57,009 bases of DNA. Origin: Nitrospirales bacterium. Lineage in GTDB: Bacteria > Nitrospirota > Nitrospiria > Nitrospirales > UBA8639. The DNA is taken from contig RKSG01000145.1 of NCBI GenBank assembly GCA_007570995.1, forward strand, positions 79,181 through 136,189, read 5' to 3'. This document shows, piece by piece, positions 47,039 to 54,052 of the stretch (positions are counted from its first letter, which is position 1; the number at the start of each line of letters is the position of its first letter). The notes under the pieces were generated by a model, which saw only the letters and a list, made by a program, of their open reading frames with translations, was not told the origin of the DNA and made no database searches. The position numbers were made by a program, and so were the translations under genes.

Positions 47039-47070
47039 TGGGCTTTGGATGATTCCTCACATGAAAAAGC

Positions 47071-47112
47071 CCCCCCTCCGTCATTCCCGCAGTGAGTTGA
47101 GCGGGAATCCAT
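47071..47112. repeat. REP-like palindrome, copy 1
   Basis: ATTCCCGC (47083-47090) pairs with GCGGGAAT (47101-47108) around a 10-base loop, preceded by a run of C and CTCCGTC and followed by CCATGG. A near-identical inverted copy is at 56937-56976. The element lies between the convergent ends of the Deg protease and the fusion gene and may also help to end transcription. A smaller palindrome GGGATG/CATCCC (47113-47125) follows it. Confidence 0.75.
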
Positions 47113-47126
47113 GGGATGTCATCCCG

Positions 47127-49397
47127 TTATCGCTCCGCATGAATAATGCTCACAAAACTTTCCTCGCCGCCATACACGGAACAGGCATGCTCGAAAATCT
47201 CGCACAGTCGCTTGCCGGATTCAAGGGGCGCCGTGGCAAAGATCGTGTTCAGTTCATTGATTAAACGAGCGTCTTTAAAGGCCAGATTCAGAGTGAATCC
47301 CGGCCCTGATCCATCCTTCAGCAATGCGGGAACGACTTTTTCCATCACCCAGCTGTTGCCGGCGCTTGACTGGACCATTGTCACGAGCTGGTGCAGATCA
47401 AGACCGGCTTCCCTGCCCAGAGAGAGGACTTCGCCGATAGCCTTGGCATTGACGAAGCACAGATAATTGATTAGCAGCTTCACGATCACGGCGTTGGAAA
47501 ACGTTCCGACATAATAAATGTGCTCGCCTACCGCTTCCAGCACCCCCTTGACTTTCTCGAATGACTCGCTGTGACCGCCGACAAACATGGAGAGCGTGCC
47601 TGTCTCGGCGGCTTTTGCCCCGCCCGACACCGGTGCAGCAATGGATGCGATGCCGCATTCGCTGGCACGGGTCGAAATCGTCTTCATGGTGTCGATGGAG
47701 TTCGTGCCCGTGTCGAGCCAGATCGCGCCAGGCCTGGCATGGGCCAGCACGCCTGCCTCGCCGAGCATCACTGCCTCCAGTTGTTGCGGCCCCGGCAGAC
47801 AAGTGATGATGACATCGGCCTGACGTGCCACAGCCTGCACAGAATCACACCACATGGCACCGGCGGCGGTGACCATGTCCGCCCTGGTTGCTTCAATGTC
47901 ATAAGCGGAGAGCTTAAAACCACGCTTCAGCAGGTTAGCGGCCATGTTGCCGCCGATGGTGCCAAGACCGATGATCCCCACATGCCCAGCACGTGCGGTG
48001 GTGCCACGTGAGGAAGTCGTAACAGCCTCCTGTTCAGATCCAGGGGCATGCCTGGTCCTCCCGGATTCATTGCAGGCTGCATCGGCAATGGCCAGTGCCT
48101 CGTCAATCACGGCAAAGCCTTCATCAAGTTGCGCCCGGGTAATACAAAGGGGTGGTGACAGGAACAGCCAGTTCCAGCGCAACAGGGTGTACAGTCCCCC
48201 TTGAAGCAGACGGGAGCCAATCTCGCTCATCACCCCCATTTCATCCGGCCTGGCATTCCACGGCACCAGCGGTTCCCGGGTCTCCCGGTTTTTAACGCAC
48301 TCAATCACGCCGTAGAGGCCCAGACTGCGCACATCCCCCACGGAAGGATGGGCGGCCTTCATCTGCTGAAGCCACTCCGCCATATAATCACCGAGAAGAC
48401 GGCTGTTCGCCACCAGATTCTCTTCCTCGTAGATGGTCATGGTGGCCAGGGCAGCCGCGCAACCCAGGGGATACCCGCTGAAGGTCAGTCCACAGCCAAG
48501 AGGAATCTCATCGAAATAATCGGCGATGGGCTGTCTGACACTGACGGCTCCCAGAGGAACATACCCGCAGGTCAGACCTTTGGCCATGGTCATGATGTCC
48601 GGAACCACACCATAATGCTCGATGGCAAACATTTTCCCCGTGCGTCCAAACCCGGTCAGGACTTCGTCGCAGATCAGCAGAATGCCATGCCGGTCTGCAT
48701 AGTCCCGCAGGGCCTGCCAGTAGCCATCGGGGGGAATAATCACCCCGTTGAAACCTGTGATGGGTTCCATCAGGATCGCCGCGACGGTCTGCGGGCCTTC
48801 CAACTCAATCGTCTGGATCACATGATCGATGTAAATCTGAGGATTGCCGTGCGGCGCGTACCCGAATGGACAGCGGTAGGCATAGGGATCATGCACACGC
48901 ACAAAGCCACTCACCCCCATTTCACTGTAGAGGCGCCTGGGATCGCCGGTCGCGGTGCCTGCGCCAAGAGACGCGCCATGATAGCTGCGATAGCGGGTGA
49001 TGATCTTGTGCCGGCCGGTGTACTGCCGGGCGATTTTAATGGCATTCTCAATCGCCTCGGCGCCCCCGAGGGTGAACAGCGTTTTGTTCAGATCGCCCGG
49101 TGTCATCGCGGCCAGTTTCGCTGCTGCCTTCGCCCTGATATCCGTTGCGGCGCCGGGATGCGCAAAGGACAGTGTCTGCGCCTGCTGCTGCAGGGCCGTC
49201 AGCAGTGCAGGATGACTGTGACCGATGTTCATATTGACAACCTGACTGGCGAAGTCGAGATAGCGTTTGCCCGTCTTGTCCCAGAAGTACACGCCTTCGG
49301 CGCGGTCCATCACGATGGGAGTGCGGGCACTGTTCTGGGCCACCCATGGAAACAACACATGATCGCGGTGGGCTTGCACAATCGTTGCGGCATTCAT
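47127..49397 (-). CDS. Class III aminotransferase fused to beta-hydroxyacid dehydrogenase
   Basis: A 756-residue fusion (start ATG 49397 with AAGGAAA upstream). Residues 1-~440 form a class III omega-aminotransferase: LFTLGGAEAIENA at ~107, LLICDEVLTGFGRTGKMF with Asp244 and the PLP lysine Lys273 in MAKGLTCGYVPLGA. After a linker (~443-470, Ser/Thr/Arg-rich), residues 471-756 form an NAD(P) dehydrogenase of the 3-hydroxyisobutyrate dehydrogenase family: GIIGLGTIGGNMAANL (475-490), substrate motif APVSGGAKAAETG, and the catalytic lysine in VIVKLLINYL (~640). The pair would turn an omega-amino compound into a semialdehyde and reduce it to a hydroxy acid, or the reverse. Substrate unknown (3-aminoisobutyrate, beta-alanine, taurine and GABA types are all possible). 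Last gene of the cluster. Confidence 0.85.
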   Translation of the reverse strand: MNAATIVQAHRDHVLFPWVAQNSARTPIVMDRAEGVYFWDKTGKRYLDFASQVVNMNIGHSHPALLTALQQQAQTLSFAHPGAATDIRAKAAAKLAAMTPGDLNKTLFTLGGAEAIENAIKIARQYTGRHKIITRYRSYHGASLGAGTATGDPRRLYSEMGVSGFVRVHDPYAYRCPFGYAPHGNPQIYIDHVIQTIELEGPQTVAAILMEPITGFNGVIIPPDGYWQALRDYADRHGILLICDEVLTGFGRTGKMFAIEHYGVVPDIMTMAKGLTCGYVPLGAVSVRQPIADYFDEIPLGCGLTFSGYPLGCAAALATMTIYEEENLVANSRLLGDYMAEWLQQMKAAHPSVGDVRSLGLYGVIECVKNRETREPLVPWNARPDEMGVMSEIGSRLLQGGLYTLLRWNWLFLSPPLCITRAQLDEGFAVIDEALAIADAACNESGRTRHAPGSEQEAVTTSSRGTTARAGHVGIIGLGTIGGNMAANLLKRGFKLSAYDIEATRADMVTAAGAMWCDSVQAVARQADVIITCLPGPQQLEAVMLGEAGVLAHARPGAIWLDTGTNSIDTMKTISTRASECGIASIAAPVSGGAKAAETGTLSMFVGGHSESFEKVKGVLEAVGEHIYYVGTFSNAVIVKLLINYLCFVNAKAIGEVLSLGREAGLDLHQLVTMVQSSAGNSWVMEKVVPALLKDGSGPGFTLNLAFKDARLINELNTIFATAPLESGKRLCEIFEHACSVYGGEESFVSIIHAER

Positions 49398-49443
49398 CGG
49401 CGTTTCCTTCTCGGGGACATGGGACTGCCCGGACGACGTCCCG

Positions 49444-50292
49444 TTACAGGCGGCGAAGGTCCAACAGGCCCCATTGAAACAGGCCCTGTTCGGCAGCATC
49501 CACCCAGTGATCAAATCCGGCTCTCGTCAGTGCCAGAAATTCTGCTGAACAGCGTCGGCGCAGTTCAGCGTCATGCTCCGCCACGGCGTCTTTCCATTTG
49601 CTGTAGTGGATCAGCAGGTGTGGGGACAAATCAACCGTCTCACGGCATTCAAAGCCGAGTGCAGCCGCCGTCTCCTGGTAAGACCGGAAAGAGCTGATAC
49701 GCGCATGGTGGATATTGACCCGTCTCAGTGCCGTCTTCAAGGCACCATCAGGGCAATCGTCGGATTGCAGAATATCCATCAGAAGAAATTGTCCGCCCGG
49801 TTTCAGCACGCGACAGGTTTCCGCCAGCACTTGGGCCGGGTCATCGGTATGAAACAGGGCATCCTGGGTCCAGGCCAGATCAAAGACAGCATCGTCCAAG
49901 GGCATGGCCTTGAAGTTGCCCGGCACGACGTCAATCAGATGATCGAGATGCTGTTGTCGATTAATCGCCTGATTTTTGGCATTCTGCTCTTCGCTGACAT
50001 TGAGACAGGTAACATGGCACCCGTAGGTCCGGGCCAGGTAACGGGCTGCGGGTCCATAGCCCGCGCCGATGTCCAGGACATGGAACGTGGCAGTCAGCCC
50101 CTCTGCCTTTCCTGCCATCCACTCGGTGGTGTTCCGCATCGCCTGTGCAATCGTGCGCGTGGGGTCGTCATACAGGCCCAGATTGAGCGTATCGCCGCCG
50201 ATGACTACCTCGTACAGATTCTGCGCGTCCTGGCTGTTGTAATGTCGACGCGCCTGCTCCGACGCAGCCTGCGGCTCGTTTGTCGTGCCCAT
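49444..50292 (-). CDS. Sarcosine/dimethylglycine N-methyltransferase-like enzyme
   Basis: A 282-residue SAM methyltransferase; the start at 50292 has a strong GGAGGTG site inside the end of the upstream gene (the frame opens at 50382). The whole pattern follows the SDMT group of glycine betaine synthesis: EQARRHYNSQDAQNLYEVVIGG near the start, SAM motif I VLDIGAGYGPAARYLA (72-87), CHVTCLNVSEEQN, WTQDALFHTDDP, LKPGGQFLLMDILQSDDCP and the C-terminal FDHWVDA..QGLFQWG. SDMT methylates sarcosine and dimethylglycine to betaine. No glycine-sarcosine methyltransferase is next to it, so the amine it methylates may differ. It is translated closely after the SHMT-like gene. Confidence 0.8.
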   Translation of the reverse strand: MGTTNEPQAASEQARRHYNSQDAQNLYEVVIGGDTLNLGLYDDPTRTIAQAMRNTTEWMAGKAEGLTATFHVLDIGAGYGPAARYLARTYGCHVTCLNVSEEQNAKNQAINRQQHLDHLIDVVPGNFKAMPLDDAVFDLAWTQDALFHTDDPAQVLAETCRVLKPGGQFLLMDILQSDDCPDGALKTALRRVNIHHARISSFRSYQETAAALGFECRETVDLSPHLLIHYSKWKDAVAEHDAELRRRCSAEFLALTRAGFDHWVDAAEQGLFQWGLLDLRRL

Positions 50293-50294
50293 GT

Positions 50295-51650
50295 TTACAA
50301 CACCTCCATTAAGTTTGCAGACGATGCAGTGGCCGTATGGCTGTCCCTGACCCGGGGATACCAGGCCCGGTGACGGAGACACAAAGCGGCGACTTCCTGG
50401 CGCACGGAGCGGATGGTCTGGGCCGTTGGTGTATCGCTGAGCATCTTGTCAATCATCGTCGCGATGGCATGCATGTCCTCCTGGCTATACCCGCGGGATG
50501 TCATCGCGGCAGTTCCGATGCGGATACCACTGCAGACCAGTGGGGAATGTTGGTCGTACGGAATCAGGTTCTTATTCACCATGATGTTCACGCTGGCCAG
50601 CCGGTTTTCCGCCTCGACCCCGGTGATACGTTGCCGACTCAAATCCAGAACCATGAGATGATTCTCCGTTCCCCCCGTGATGAGCTGAAAGCCGTACTGC
50701 ATCAGGTCCTCGGCCAGGATGCGGGCATTATTGAGCACCGCGTGCTGATAGGTGACAAAATCGGGCTGCAAGGCCTCGCCCAGGGCCACGGCCTTGGCAG
50801 CGATGGTGTGCATGTGCGCGGCACCTTGAGTTCCGGGGAACAGCGCGCGATCAATGCGTTGCGCAAATGCCTCGGCCGTCTCCTCGCCGAGTAAAATCAT
50901 CCCGCCGCGCGGCCCGCGCAACGTTTTCTGTGTGCTCGTCGTTACGAAATGCGCATGAGGCACGGGAGAAGGATGCAGGCCTGCCGCAATCAATCCCGCG
51001 ACATGCGCCATATCGCACAGCAGCAATGCCCCGACCTCATCAGCAATCTCACGAAAACGCTTGAAATCAATGATCCGGGGATAGGCGCTGGCCCCGGCGA
51101 TAAGCAAACCCGGGCGTACCTCTTTCGCCCGGGCAAGGAGTTGATCGTAGTCAATGCGCCCGCTGTGGTGGTCGACACTATACGAATAGCTGACATGATG
51201 GCGTGCTGCCATGGTGCCTTTCGCCCCGTGGGTCAAATGCCCGCCATGCTTCAGGTCCATGCCCAGGATGCGGTCACCGGATTTCAAATTGCACAAGTAC
51301 ACCGCCTGATTGGCCTGCGAACACGAATACGGCTGGACATTGGCATGTGCGGCGCCGAACAATTGTCTGGCTCGGCGCTTGGCCAGGTTTTCAAGCCTGT
51401 CCATCTCTTCGCATCCGCTGAAATAGCGTTGTCCTGGATACCCTTCCACCACATTATCCGTAACGGATGATCCCATGGCCTCAAGGACGCTGGGGCTGAC
51501 AATATTTGCCGAGGCGATCATGTCCAGACTGTCCTGTCGCCGCTGGCGTTCACGTTTGATAACGGAAAACAGCTCGGGGTCCTGTTGTCGTAAGGTGGCA
51601 TACCGCTGCAGTTCATCATCGGCTGGCGTCTGCAATGGTTGACGACTCAT
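50295..51650 (-). CDS. SHMT-fold PLP enzyme lacking the folate-active glutamate
   Basis: A 451-residue protein with AAAGGAG five bases before the ATG at 51650. It aligns along its whole length with serine hydroxymethyltransferase. PLP-binding Asp213 (LCDMAHVAG), Schiff-base Lys242 (QKTLRGPRGG) and carboxylate-binding Arg377 (SGIRIGT) are present. Several conserved residues differ: the IASEN motif is IASAN, so the catalytic Glu is Ala48, and the Tyr two residues later is Ile50; RYYGG is RYFSG; HSGSQAN is YSCSQAN (Tyr108, Cys110); the His before Lys242 is Gln241. In GlyA that Glu is required for the tetrahydrofolate reaction but not for folate-independent aldol cleavage. This suggests an aldolase, transaldolase or other PLP reaction on a beta-hydroxy amino acid instead of ordinary GlyA. 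Calling it glyA would be risky. Confidence 0.85.
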   Translation of the reverse strand: MSRQPLQTPADDELQRYATLRQQDPELFSVIKRERQRRQDSLDMIASANIVSPSVLEAMGSSVTDNVVEGYPGQRYFSGCEEMDRLENLAKRRARQLFGAAHANVQPYSCSQANQAVYLCNLKSGDRILGMDLKHGGHLTHGAKGTMAARHHVSYSYSVDHHSGRIDYDQLLARAKEVRPGLLIAGASAYPRIIDFKRFREIADEVGALLLCDMAHVAGLIAAGLHPSPVPHAHFVTTSTQKTLRGPRGGMILLGEETAEAFAQRIDRALFPGTQGAAHMHTIAAKAVALGEALQPDFVTYQHAVLNNARILAEDLMQYGFQLITGGTENHLMVLDLSRQRITGVEAENRLASVNIMVNKNLIPYDQHSPLVCSGIRIGTAAMTSRGYSQEDMHAIATMIDKMLSDTPTAQTIRSVRQEVAALCLRHRAWYPRVRDSHTATASSANLMEVL

Positions 51651-51667
51651 CCGTACTCCTTTCCTGA

Positions 51668-52327
51668 TCAGGCGGTCCATTCCGTTTCAGACGTCCATTC
51701 CAGGTCGGGCAGGAACTGCCGAATCCGCGAAACAGACAACGCACCTGAGCGCAACAGTCTCGGGACAGCTCCCGTAAAATCAACCAGGGTGGAGGGATTG
51801 CTCCGCTGGCTTGGCCCACCGTCCAGCACCAGCGGAACCTGCGGGCCGAGTTGCCGTGCGACATCCTGCGCGGTGTCATGCGTCACCATCCCGGACACAT
51901 TCGCACTGGTCATGGCGACAGGATAGCCGACCCGCTCCACCAGATCCAGACACAACCGATTGTCGGGAATACGCACCGCCACCGCTCCGATACCGGCAGT
52001 CACGTAATCCGGGACCACCTCATCATTCTTGAGAAAGATCCCGGCCATTGCCCCAGGCCAGATATTCCGCAGAGCACCGATGGTTTGTTCGTCCACATAC
52101 ACGACCACCTGTCGAAACTGTTCAAAGCCGGCGACATAGATCATGACAGGCTTGCCCCGGCTGCGTGCTTTCACATCATAAATCTTCTCGATCCCGGACG
52201 CGGTTGCGATACTGGCGGCGATGCCATACACCGTATCGGTAGGAAGCACCACGACATCTCCCCTCTCGAGCAGTGCCACGGCCCTGTCGACCGCTCGCGC
52301 ATCCGTTGCAGGTAAAATCTCTGTCAC
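51668..52327 (-). CDS. L-threonylcarbamoyladenylate synthase-like (TsaC/YrdC/Sua5)
   Basis: A 219-residue YrdC-fold protein starting with GTG at 52327 (AAGGA six bases upstream). Landmarks: VVLPTDTVYGIAA (the ATP/substrate pocket) at ~25-37, KARSRGKPVMIYV, and the binding loop PVAMTSANVSG at ~135-145. Family enzymes join threonine, bicarbonate and ATP to threonylcarbamoyl-AMP for the t6A tRNA modification. Length fits TsaC without the Sua5 extra domain. Most genomes have one essential copy, so it may be that housekeeping gene placed in the cluster. Separated from the SHMT-like gene by 17 bases. Confidence 0.85.
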   Translation of the reverse strand: MTEILPATDARAVDRAVALLERGDVVVLPTDTVYGIAASIATASGIEKIYDVKARSRGKPVMIYVAGFEQFRQVVVYVDEQTIGALRNIWPGAMAGIFLKNDEVVPDYVTAGIGAVAVRIPDNRLCLDLVERVGYPVAMTSANVSGMVTHDTAQDVARQLGPQVPLVLDGGPSQRSNPSTLVDFTGAVPRLLRSGALSVSRIRQFLPDLEWTSETEWTA

Positions 52328-52419
52328 CAGTCTTCCTTCACCTGGGGTGGCACCATCTGTCCGCTTGATATGCGAGGGTGTGTCCGGGCAGGTGTGATCC
52401 AGCGAATGCCCAGTGTTCG

Positions 52420-53424
52420 CTAACGCCGGGTGGCTTCAATGATAACGCCGTCCCAGTCGCCGGTTCCCTTTTTCAACTGAAGACACCGTGGTTGGCGGAA
52501 TCCGCAAATTGTCAGCCATCGTTGCACCTCCTGGGCACTGTAGGTATTCCCCGCCCGGGAGTACAGGAGCATCGTAATGGCAAACAGGTTCGTTTCCAGG
52601 ACATTGAACCCCGGCCTGTTCATGAGAAACGTGTCTTGAATAAGAATGCGTCCGCCGGGGGGAATCGCACGTCTCAGTTTGTAGAACAGGGTTCGGTTTT
52701 CGACCGGTGAGAACATGTGCACTACGTTTGAGACCCACATCACGTCAAACGTTCCGGGCACTGGATCATTGAACAGGTCGCCGGCATGACAGGACAGTCG
52801 TGCACCGTGACGCAGCGGTTCGGCGATCTGTTGGGCAACATCCAGGGCATCCGCACGATCCCAGATACCCGCGTGCAACTTGGGATGTTTCCTCAAAAAC
52901 TCCAGTGCATACGTACCGGGGCCGCCTCCCACATCCAGGAGAGAGGTCACGTTTTTCAGATTCAGCTGCGCCGCCACCTCTCTTGCAGGTTTCAGCGACC
53001 GCTGGTGCATGGCCCAGGTAAATGAACGACGGGATGCGGGATCACTGTTCTCAATGGGCTTCGGATCGCGTATCACCGTCTTCAACTGTGCCCAGGACTG
53101 CCACTGTTGCACGATCAGGTCAAGATACGCGCCCTGATAGTCCGGGCTGTTCCGGTTCAGGTATGTGCGTCCCAACGGGCCAACACCATAGGCGGCACCC
53201 TGTTTGAAGAGCAGGCCGACGGTATGCAGATTGCGAAGCAGAATCTCCACCGCGCGATCATTGGCCTCCAATGCCCTGGCCAGGACTTTGGGAGTCCAGA
53301 CCCGTTTGCCCATGTGGGTGAACACGTCGAGCTCAAGCGCCGTGGCCAGCAGGCCAGGCAAACGAAACGCATACAGCACATCCTTGAACTGCTCCATGGT
53401 ACGAATGGGCAATGGTGTCATCAT
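52420..53424 (-). CDS. O-methyltransferase-type SAM methyltransferase with dimerisation domain
   Basis: A 334-residue protein (start 53424 with AAGGAAGGA upstream; the frame opens at 53493). The first ~90 residues are a winged-helix dimerisation domain (LPGLLATALELDVFTH, ARALEANDRAVEILLRNLHTVGLL), and the rest a Rossmann domain with motif I LLDVGGGPGTYALEFL at ~165. The catalytic-region pattern VSNVVHMFSPVE..., then PPGGRILIQDTFL matches the plant-type and CrtF/BchU O-methyltransferases. A conserved His sits in VVHMF. The acceptor is unknown; it could be a hydroxyl or carbon. No overlap with the next gene. Confidence 0.8.
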   Translation of the reverse strand: MMTPLPIRTMEQFKDVLYAFRLPGLLATALELDVFTHMGKRVWTPKVLARALEANDRAVEILLRNLHTVGLLFKQGAAYGVGPLGRTYLNRNSPDYQGAYLDLIVQQWQSWAQLKTVIRDPKPIENSDPASRRSFTWAMHQRSLKPAREVAAQLNLKNVTSLLDVGGGPGTYALEFLRKHPKLHAGIWDRADALDVAQQIAEPLRHGARLSCHAGDLFNDPVPGTFDVMWVSNVVHMFSPVENRTLFYKLRRAIPPGGRILIQDTFLMNRPGFNVLETNLFAITMLLYSRAGNTYSAQEVQRWLTICGFRQPRCLQLKKGTGDWDGVIIEATRR

Positions 53425-53437
53425 AGCATCCTTCCTT

Positions 53438-54052
53438 TCACGGCTGACCTGGGATTGTGGTGTGTAACGCTCGTTCAACCACGGCTTTTGCACCGGTCAT
53501 GATAGAGGCTCCGTCACCGACCAGGAGTGAATCAAAATGATAGTTGAGCACACGACGTACCCCCTCGCGTGCCCTGGCCGGGTCGGCGTATTTTGCGTCT
53601 GGCAACAGACTCACCGAGCCTGCGGGTTTGCCGAGCAGGGCGTCCCCGACAAGCAGGACCCCCCTCCCCTGCTGCAGAAACAGAGCCGACTCACCAGGCG
53701 ACTTCTGATCGGCCAGGTGGATGACCCACAGGCCGCCGGGCAGCAGTTCCCCATCCACAAAGGTCTTGTCGGGCGTCACCGACATCTCTGGTGCATCTGC
53801 CTTCGGAACATAGACGCGAGCGTGCAACTCGTCCCGGTACCGGGCGGCTTCGCGTACATGGTCACGATTCGTGAGCACGATGTAATCCACGCCGCCGGCG
53901 GCCTTAAGCTGTGTCAGATCAGCATCAGGGAGAGGGGGAGGATCAACGAGGATACGATGTTCGCCCACGTCCAGCAAATGGCCATTAAACTCAATCTGCT
54001 TTTCCTCGGAAAACCACGACCAGGTCGCGATGCCGGGCAGAACGGGCCTCAT
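53438..54052 (-). CDS. Metallo-beta-lactamase-fold protein with lost metal ligands
   Basis: A 204-residue protein with the MBL-fold strand order, including LLVGDALLG near 134-142. The metal motif HxHxDH is replaced by TNRDH (61-65, only DH kept), PGH is PGE121, and the final GH is GDG. Only Asp137 in VGDAL clearly remains. It therefore probably does not bind two zinc ions as normal members do. It may be structural or bind another ligand, or belong to a known ligand-poor MBL branch. Its start overlaps the upstream gene's stop by ATGA. Confidence 0.7.
   Translation of the reverse strand: MRPVLPGIATWSWFSEEKQIEFNGHLLDVGEHRILVDPPPLPDADLTQLKAAGGVDYIVLTNRDHVREAARYRDELHARVYVPKADAPEMSVTPDKTFVDGELLPGGLWVIHLADQKSPGESALFLQQGRGVLLVGDALLGKPAGSVSLLPDAKYADPARAREGVRRVLNYHFDSLLVGDGASIMTGAKAVVERALHTTIPGQP

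What the first reader, a model, noticed from the sequence alone, without database searches (positions are those of the whole stretch)
47127..53424. Candidate new amino acid/amine pathway built around a folate-independent SHMT-fold enzyme
Five minus-strand genes in a row combine an SHMT-fold protein whose folate-dependent glutamate is alanine (A48), an SDMT-type N-methyltransferase with its ribosome binding site inside the end of that gene, and an aminotransferase-dehydrogenase fusion, plus TsaC-like and O-methyltransferase-like genes. A PLP carbon-carbon bond enzyme, methylation, amino transfer and semialdehyde reduction form a plausible chain for making or breaking an unusual amino acid or amine. 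Seen: gene order, spacing and residues. Known: the roles of these families. Inferred: that they act on one substrate.
Basis: partly seen in the sequence, partly recalled or inferred. Interest (0 to 1): 0.8.

Follow-up and report, generated by a model that had tools for sequence, protein, structure and literature searches.

The report
Mobile amino-acid-building gene cassette
A block of four neighbouring genes, found also in some cyanobacteria and in an animal symbiont, looks like a transferred kit for making an unusual methylated amino acid, built around a serine enzyme that has probably switched to a bulkier substrate while keeping its folate cofactor site.

Summary
The genes are real and travel together, but the key residue was misread. 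A48 aligns with E. coli SHMT E36; the folate glutamate (E57) is present as E69, and all six published folate-site residues are kept in 12 of 12 members. "Folate-independent" is not supported. What changed is the PLP/amino-acid pocket: Y55V, Y65F, H228Q, G263A, P264A/V (12/12; 0/79 ordinary SHMTs). These positions, and P367, are also the ones changed in methylserine-type hydroxymethyltransferases, on a separate branch. Best reading: a folate-dependent hydroxymethyltransferase for an alpha-substituted amino acid.

The cassette (TsaC-like, SHMT-like, SDMT-like, aminotransferase-dehydrogenase; 47127-52327) recurs in Ca. Endobugula sertula and ten cyanobacteria, partly in three of them. SHMT-like and SDMT-like are neighbours in 12/12 loci, with the aminotransferase in 11/12. 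In 8 of 8 same-genus genomes examined the site lacks it. The O-methyltransferase is a core genus gene, not part of it. Inferred chemistry: hydroxymethylation, oxidation, transamination, N-methylation, carbamoyl activation. The product is unknown.

The parts
47127..49397 (-). Fusion of a class III aminotransferase (N-terminal) and a beta-hydroxyacid dehydrogenase of the 3-hydroxyisobutyrate dehydrogenase type (C-terminal)
   Evidence: Pfam Aminotran_3, NAD_binding_2, NAD_binding_11; nearest solved structure of the aminotransferase part is taurine:2-oxoglutarate aminotransferase 6jix, 363.8 bits against 281.8 for the next; fused also in E. sertula, separate genes in the cyanobacterial loci that hold both
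49444..50292 (-). SDMT-like SAM-dependent N-methyltransferase
   Evidence: NCBIfam NF041675 254.5 bits, cut-off 550 not reached; 58-68% identical among cassette copies, other homologues at most 44% over full length; one contig-cut partial match at 51% (G726) was not examined
50295..51650 (-). SHMT-like PLP enzyme; changed A48, V67, F77, S78, S239, Q241, A277, A278, A381; kept S47, E69, Y76, H138, D213, H216, K242, R377
   Evidence: Pfam SHMT 499 bits; residue table
50303..50307 (-). GGAGG ribosome binding site of the SDMT-like gene inside the last codons of the SHMT-like gene
   Evidence: Sequence
51668..52327 (-). TsaC-like carbamoyl-AMP synthase family protein, a second copy in this genome
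   Evidence: TIGR00057 163 bits, over its cut-off; 59-62% to other cassette copies, 25-39% to the other copies compared; separate branch 100/100; the other copy is on contig C62
47039..52419 (.). Stretch inserted between the HtrA-like and O-methyltransferase genes relative to same-genus genomes
   Evidence: 8 of 8 same-genus regions fetched have the flanks and no cassette; in G002 about 245 bases separate the two genes
52420..53424 (-). O-methyltransferase-like gene: neighbour, not part of the cassette
   Evidence: In 13 of 13 same-genus relatives at 65-70% identity; no match in the 11 other cassette loci

Best explanation
A horizontally acquired biosynthetic cassette for a small unusual amino acid. 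Shown by sequence: TsaC-like, SHMT-like, SDMT-like, class III aminotransferase and beta-hydroxyacid dehydrogenase genes form a conserved unit; the SHMT-like enzyme keeps the folate site and the PLP lysine but has changed its amino-acid pocket at positions that also differ in methylserine-type hydroxymethyltransferases. Inferred: the SHMT-like enzyme is a folate-dependent hydroxymethyltransferase that puts CH2OH on the alpha carbon of an alpha-substituted amino acid, giving a quaternary serine-type product. The dehydrogenase oxidises CH2OH to CHO; the aminotransferase, fused to it here, turns CHO into CH2NH2; the SDMT-like enzyme N-methylates; the TsaC-like enzyme activates an amine as a carbamoyl-AMP, which beside a second amine would close to a cyclic urea. 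In most other carriers a gamma-butyrobetaine-type oxygenase, and in some a sulfotransferase, further methyltransferases or a decarboxylase, would tailor the product. Odds by step: conserved transferred unit about 0.95; enzyme identity about 0.6; the whole chain about 0.3.
For: Unit: 12 loci, control 0 of 27, distances of the six proteins correlate at r 0.82-0.99, Mantel p 0.001-0.019. Transfer: empty site in 8 of 8 same-genus regions, 1 of 365 genomes sampled in the own phylum, no full-length fusion match in 96 relatives. Enzyme identity: six published folate-site residues kept in 12 of 12; Y55V, Y65F, H228Q, G263A and P264A/V in 12 of 12 against 0 of 79 canonical rows with a residue there; Tyr55 and Tyr65 are described as the donor-specificity positions that differ in alpha-methylserine hydroxymethyltransferase, and Y55T as widening SHMT to D-Ser (PMC6411801, passages); the TRIS-pathway mSHMT and three relatives carry Y55T, Y65H, H228T, G263S, P264A/L, P367S with E57 kept; 6 shared positions among 9 and 10 changed of 100 conserved columns, hypergeometric p 1.3e-5; a joint clade fits worse, p-AU 0.038, which suggests parallel change. 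The housekeeping roles are covered by a second SHMT and a second TsaC. Chain: dehydrogenase nearest solved relatives act on hydroxymethyl acids (with the G179 copy); aminotransferase nearest is taurine:2-oxoglutarate aminotransferase.
Against: No substrate or product is shown. The pocket residues differ in kind from mSHMT (V, F, Q, A against T, H, T, S), and E36A, G66S and T226S are the cassette's own. The TRIS mSHMT's activity is itself called plausible in that paper's abstract, by similarity and growth. The mSHMTs also carry Y64F, which the cassette does not. Active-site columns are not independent, so the p-value is optimistic. One locus (G1313) has the first two genes without the others in about 56 kb read. 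By plain identity the window TsaC-like protein is not closest to the E. sertula copy (59%; L226 62%), though the tree joins them.
Confidence: 0.5

Rival explanations
1. The SHMT-like enzyme is a folate-independent aldolase, working as in guanitoxin or carnitine biosynthesis: an oxygenase hydroxylates the beta carbon of an amino acid, the PLP enzyme cleaves it to glycine and an aldehyde, the aminotransferase or dehydrogenase processes the aldehyde, the methyltransferase methylates the amine.
For: An Fe/2-oxoglutarate oxygenase is present in 9 of 12 loci. Guanitoxin uses a retro-aldol (GntG) and a transamination (GntE) step (PMC10367076, passages). The changed pocket could admit larger aldehydes.
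Against: The folate site is intact in 12 of 12, which an enzyme free of folate has no evident reason to keep. The window genome has no TauD-family oxygenase match. Identity to ordinary SHMT is 46-50%, unlike the 25-35% given for threonine transaldolases (PMC8072733, passage).
Confidence: 0.15
2. A betaine (quaternary ammonium) pathway of carnitine type: the SDMT-like enzyme trimethylates an amino acid and the gamma-butyrobetaine-type oxygenase hydroxylates the betaine, for example as an osmolyte.
For: SDMT relatives make glycine betaine; nearest solved relatives of the oxygenase are TmpA, DfmD and gamma-butyrobetaine dioxygenase, whose substrates are trimethylammonium compounds (for DfmD and gamma-butyrobetaine dioxygenase recalled).
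Against: The position of the cage tyrosine Tyr194 (cage residues recalled) is Asn in 9 of 9 copies. It gives no role to the SHMT-like and TsaC-like enzymes. The oxygenase is missing from the window genome.
Confidence: 0.15
3. A catabolic route: the SHMT-like enzyme removes a hydroxymethyl group from an alpha-substituted serine, as mSHMT does in TRIS degradation.
For: The mSHMT with the shared pocket positions works in a breakdown pathway (PMC10848231, abstract and passages).
Against: The cassette has an N-methyltransferase, a carbamoyl-AMP-type enzyme and in some loci a sulfotransferase, which fit building better; FolD, PurU and a D-serine dehydratase, present beside the TRIS mSHMT, were not among the cassette neighbours scanned.
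Confidence: 0.08
4. Chance neighbours of ordinary housekeeping genes.
For: Each gene has common relatives, and the O-methyltransferase neighbour is indeed a core gene.
Against: Co-occurrence in 12 genomes including a gammaproteobacterial symbiont and cyanobacteria, separate housekeeping SHMT and TsaC in the same genome, site without the genes in relatives.
Confidence: 0.02

Closest known systems
Methylserine hydroxymethyltransferase (mSHMT; TRIS plasmid p1_Teo1 and relatives)
   Same: SHMT fold; folate glutamate kept; pocket changed at E. coli positions 55, 65, 228, 263, 264, 367
   Different: Other residues at those positions; separate branch; 45% identity, no closer than to E. coli SHMT at 46%; different neighbours
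Serine hydroxymethyltransferase (GlyA)
   Same: Passes NCBIfam PRK00011 (544.7 bits, cut-off 335); folate site and PLP lysine kept
   Different: Seven positions changed in 12 of 12 members (E36, Y55, Y65, G66, H228, G263, P264); a canonical copy is also in the genome
Sarcosine/dimethylglycine N-methyltransferase
   Same: Best NCBIfam model and best solved match (2o57)
   Different: 254.5 bits against a cut-off of 550
Taurine:2-oxoglutarate aminotransferase (6jix)
   Same: Best solved match of the aminotransferase by a wide margin
   Different: Fused to a dehydrogenase here; substrate untested
TsaC/Sua5 threonylcarbamoyl-AMP synthase
   Same: TIGR00057 over cut-off; most conserved family positions kept, such as K53, R55, S141, N143, S179, R193
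   Different: Second copy in the genome, own branch; many otherwise conserved positions changed in the cassette copies
Guanitoxin biosynthesis (gnt) in cyanobacteria
   Same: Small-molecule logic with a PLP carbon-carbon enzyme and a transaminase (passages)
   Different: No homologous gene set was tested; the SHMT-like enzyme here keeps its folate site

Membership tests
Serine hydroxymethyltransferase, ordinary glycine/serine type | Folate-site residues L121, G125, L127, N347, E57, Y64 | tested here: met
   12 of 12 members keep all six
Serine hydroxymethyltransferase, ordinary glycine/serine type | Published PLP-site residues unchanged, including Y55, Y65, H228, G263 | tested here: not met
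   All four changed in 12 of 12; unchanged in 79 of 79 canonical rows with a residue there
Methylserine hydroxymethyltransferase | Tyr55 and Tyr65 replaced, folate glutamate kept | tested here: met
   V67, F77, E69; but the residues themselves are not Thr and His
Methylserine hydroxymethyltransferase | Common descent with known mSHMTs | tested here: not met
   Separate branches; joint clade p-AU 0.038
Methylserine hydroxymethyltransferase | Activity with alpha-substituted amino acids | not testable with these tools
   Needs enzyme assay
L-threonine transaldolase | Low identity to SHMT (25-35%) and family model score | tested here: not met
   46% to E. coli SHMT; TIGR04506 109.8 bits, cut-off 650; identity range from PMC8072733 passage
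Sarcosine/dimethylglycine N-methyltransferase | NCBIfam equivalog cut-off | tested here: not met
   254.5 of 550 bits
TsaC housekeeping t6A enzyme | Family model over cut-off | tested here: met
   TIGR00057 163 bits, cut-off 123.2
TsaC housekeeping t6A enzyme | Groups with the lineage's own TsaC | tested here: not met
   9 cassette copies form one branch apart from 25 others, 100/100
Gamma-butyrobetaine/carnitine-type pathway | Oxygenase with a full trimethylammonium cage | tested here: inconclusive
   Tyr194 position is Asn in 9 of 9; Trp181 position is Phe in the copies printed (cage residues recalled); the gene is absent from the window genome

The most novel reading that the evidence does not exclude
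A previously undescribed, horizontally spread route in which an SHMT, independently re-tooled at the same active-site positions as methylserine hydroxymethyltransferase, builds a quaternary amino acid; a dehydrogenase and an aminotransferase, fused in two lineages, turn its new CH2OH arm into an aminomethyl arm that is N-methylated; and a TsaC homologue, taken from tRNA modification, caps or cyclises the product as a carbamate or urea. If the acceptor were glycine after all, the same chain would give an N-methylated 2,3-diaminopropanoate of the BMAA type; this variant is weaker because the pocket has moved away from the glycine enzyme.
Probability: 0.25. Interest if true: 0.8.

Novelty: new variant of a known kind. 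Interest (0 to 1): 0.62.

Why it matters
It gives a defined, testable gene set for an unknown metabolite shared by cyanobacteria, a bryozoan symbiont and the window's lineage, and marks copies of two primary-metabolism enzyme families, SHMT and TsaC, as recruited to a transferred pathway. The parallel changes in the SHMT pocket give a residue-level hypothesis that one enzyme assay can settle. It also corrects a tempting misreading: alanine in the IASEN motif does not mean that the folate glutamate is lost.

Tried and rejected
Folate independence from A48: rejected by alignment. O-methyltransferase as a pathway member: rejected. TsaC-like gene as the housekeeping copy: rejected. Threonine transaldolase: rejected. 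Carnitine-like betaine pathway: kept only as a rival. Plasmids with the SDMT-like protein: 102 records, all under 60% identity, 3 covering 80% of the query, 12 listed. Viral contigs: none. Plasmids with the SHMT-like protein: 242 records, all under 60%, 60 listed.

Literature: searches returned 0 papers; one search returned 7, none on this cassette by their listing; one search returned 6 BMAA papers by listing, of which one was searched for a biosynthetic gene and gave only reference-list hits. So no description of the cassette was found with those searches; most subscription papers are not held.

Limits. SDMT scans used samples that partly overlap; cassette-type copies: 2 of 388 (class of G098), 1 of 369 (class of G097), 1 of 6 (order of G179), 1 of 341 (order of G097), 9 of 368 (order of G098), 1 of 365 (own phylum). 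They are called cyanobacteria because they share class or order with the Symploca genome G098. The control used 27 of 49 non-cassette matches. The canonical SHMT set is 79 fetched loci plus E. coli; one row is truncated and has no residue at the sites. Trees used about every second or third canonical row; one search dropped one near-empty row. Six plasmid SHMTs were fetched of 242 records: four show the mSHMT pattern, one is canonical (Aminobacter), one is described under noticed in passing; for three of the four were used, because the pLWPZF copy looks the same as p1_Teo1. Synteny used 8 of 13 same-genus relatives. Names KdsA, PgsA, PlsY, HtrA and EF-G-like are by eye from translations, not from a family scan. 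Structure prediction was not run.
Full report
Observation. The SHMT-like gene starts at ATG 51650 and its residue 48 is alanine; the ribosome binding site of the SDMT-like gene lies inside its last codons, an ordinary arrangement. The genome (1.98 Mb, 186 contigs, 90% complete) has another, canonical SHMT on contig C153 and another TsaC on C62.

The residue claim is out of register. In the printed alignment to the Bacillus SHMT structure the folate glutamate, E53 there and E57 in E. coli, lies in the motif aegypg and faces vegypg of the window protein, residue E69. A48 faces the E of IASEN, E36 in E. coli. A published list (PMC7916883, one passage seen) gives the E. coli folate site as L121, G125, L127, N347, E57 and Y64; all six are kept in 12 of 12 members.

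What did change is the PLP/amino-acid pocket. In 12 of 12 members, and in none of the 79 canonical rows with a residue there: E36A, Y55V, Y65F, H228Q, G263A, and P264 to A or V. G66 is S in 12 of 12 (77 of 79 canonical rows have G, none S); P367 is changed in 11 of 12 and T226 in 11 of 12. Y55, Y65, T226, H228 and G263 are in the published PLP-site list. G98, also on that list, is C in 2 of 12. A review (PMC6411801, passages seen) says that Tyr55 and Tyr65 are donor-specificity positions that differ in alpha-methylserine hydroxymethyltransferase, and that Tyr55 to Thr lets SHMT use D-Ala and D-Ser.

Test against mSHMTs. The TRIS-degradation paper (PMC10848231, abstract and passages seen) describes an mSHMT on plasmid p1_Teo1 and cites tetrahydrofolate dependence for such enzymes; its own abstract calls the conversion plausible. 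That gene (L235) and relatives on three other plasmids (L230, L232, L233) carry Y55T, Y65H, H228T, G263S, P264A or L, and P367S, with E57 kept and Y64F. Among 100 columns conserved in at least 95% of canonical rows the cassette family differs at 9, the mSHMTs (3 rows) at 10, and 6 are shared, hypergeometric p 1.3e-5; at the 85% level it is 7 shared of 14 and 16 in 145 columns, p 1.1e-4. Active-site columns are not independent, so these values are optimistic. The two groups are separate branches; holding them together costs 23 log units, p-AU 0.038. I read this as parallel change towards alpha-substituted amino acids, which fits the intact folate site. It does not name the substrate.

The cassette. 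A genome-contig scan with the SHMT-like protein gave two outliers, Ca. Endobugula sertula (65%) and a Symploca MAG (61%); all other loci among the 80 kept of 188 are at 53% or less. Both outliers hold the neighbours. Scans with the SDMT-like protein showed a gap between cassette copies (58-68%) and other homologues (at most 44% over full length, one contig-cut partial match at 51% not examined) and brought in nine more cyanobacterial loci. Across 12 loci: SHMT-like 12, SDMT-like 12, aminotransferase 11, dehydrogenase 10, TsaC-like 9, oxygenase 9, sulfotransferase 3. Exceptions: G1313 has the first two genes but none of the others in about 56 kb of contig read; in G1484 the contig ends inside the aminotransferase; in G1461 no TsaC-like gene lies between the oxygenase and the contig start; the window lacks the oxygenase. 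Of 27 non-cassette SDMT homologues none has a partner gene in the flank held. Pairwise distances of the six proteins correlate, r 0.82-0.99, Mantel p 0.001-0.019. The fusion and the TsaC-first order are seen only in the window and E. sertula, which are sisters in the SHMT-like and TsaC-like trees, although by plain identity the window's TsaC-like protein is closer to some cyanobacterial copies.

It is an insertion. The O-methyltransferase is in 13 of 13 same-genus relatives. In 8 of 8 whose region was fetched, the HtrA-like gene and the O-methyltransferase flank the site in the same arrangement, with further shared neighbours as far as the stretches reach, and no cassette gene matches. In G002 about 245 bases separate the two genes; in the others about 3 kb, which in G010 holds a gene that looks like elongation factor G (by eye). 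No full-length fusion match is among the best matches of 96 relatives, and 1 of 365 genomes sampled in the phylum, the window's own, has the SDMT-like gene at E 1e-85. G+C of the cassette (58.4%) is like that of its flanks (57.6 and 57.1%), so composition gives no sign of recent arrival.

Mechanism. The dehydrogenase's nearest solved relatives are 2-hydroxymethylglutarate and 3-hydroxyisobutyrate dehydrogenases (with the G179 copy), which act on hydroxymethyl groups next to a carboxylate (recalled). The aminotransferase's nearest is taurine:2-oxoglutarate aminotransferase. Their fusion suggests a shared aldehyde. The simplest chain is hydroxymethylation of an amino acid at its alpha carbon, oxidation to the aldehyde, transamination to an aminomethyl arm, N-methylation, and carbamoyl activation by the TsaC-like enzyme, with ring closure where two amines are neighbours. 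Every step beyond the residue evidence is inference. The oxygenase, sulfotransferase, extra methyltransferases, decarboxylase and short-chain dehydrogenase in other loci look like tailoring. The window genome has no TauD-family match, so its product would lack that step unless the gene lies in the missing tenth.

Verdict. The most probable identity of the central enzyme is a folate-dependent hydroxymethyltransferase with a new amino-acid acceptor.

Noticed in passing
L234:2956-4272 (Neorhizobium sp. NCHU2750 plasmid pNCHU2750b): A glyA-annotated SHMT homologue with the mSHMT-like changes Y55T and Y65H whose folate site is broken (E57V, L121G, L127F, N347C), among spermidine/putrescine-type transporter genes: a better candidate for a folate-independent SHMT-fold enzyme than the one in the window.
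   Followed up: partly
L230 (Pseudomonas putida plasmid pLWPZF): An mSHMT-type glyA with D-serine ammonia-lyase, FolD and PurU, the layout of the TRIS-degradation cluster II of p1_Teo1.
   Followed up: no
Window 47039-52419 and L203:8664-12005: The gap between the HtrA-like and O-methyltransferase genes varies within the genus: about 245 bases in G002, about 3 kb in seven others (an EF-G-like gene by eye in G010), the cassette here.
   Followed up: partly
L221, L228, L229 (G1313): SHMT-like and SDMT-like genes without the other cassette genes in about 56 kb, next to an FtsK-type and an AMP-binding enzyme gene.
   Followed up: partly
L225:7346-9307 and L224:1161-3122: A 653-residue ORF between the SDMT-like gene and the aminotransferase; in L225 it matches the PLP-dependent group II decarboxylase family, the L224 ORF of the same length was not scanned.
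   Followed up: no
Window 53438-54052: Metallo-beta-lactamase-fold protein (PF14597) beside the O-methyltransferase, with matches in 8 of 8 same-genus regions.
   Followed up: no
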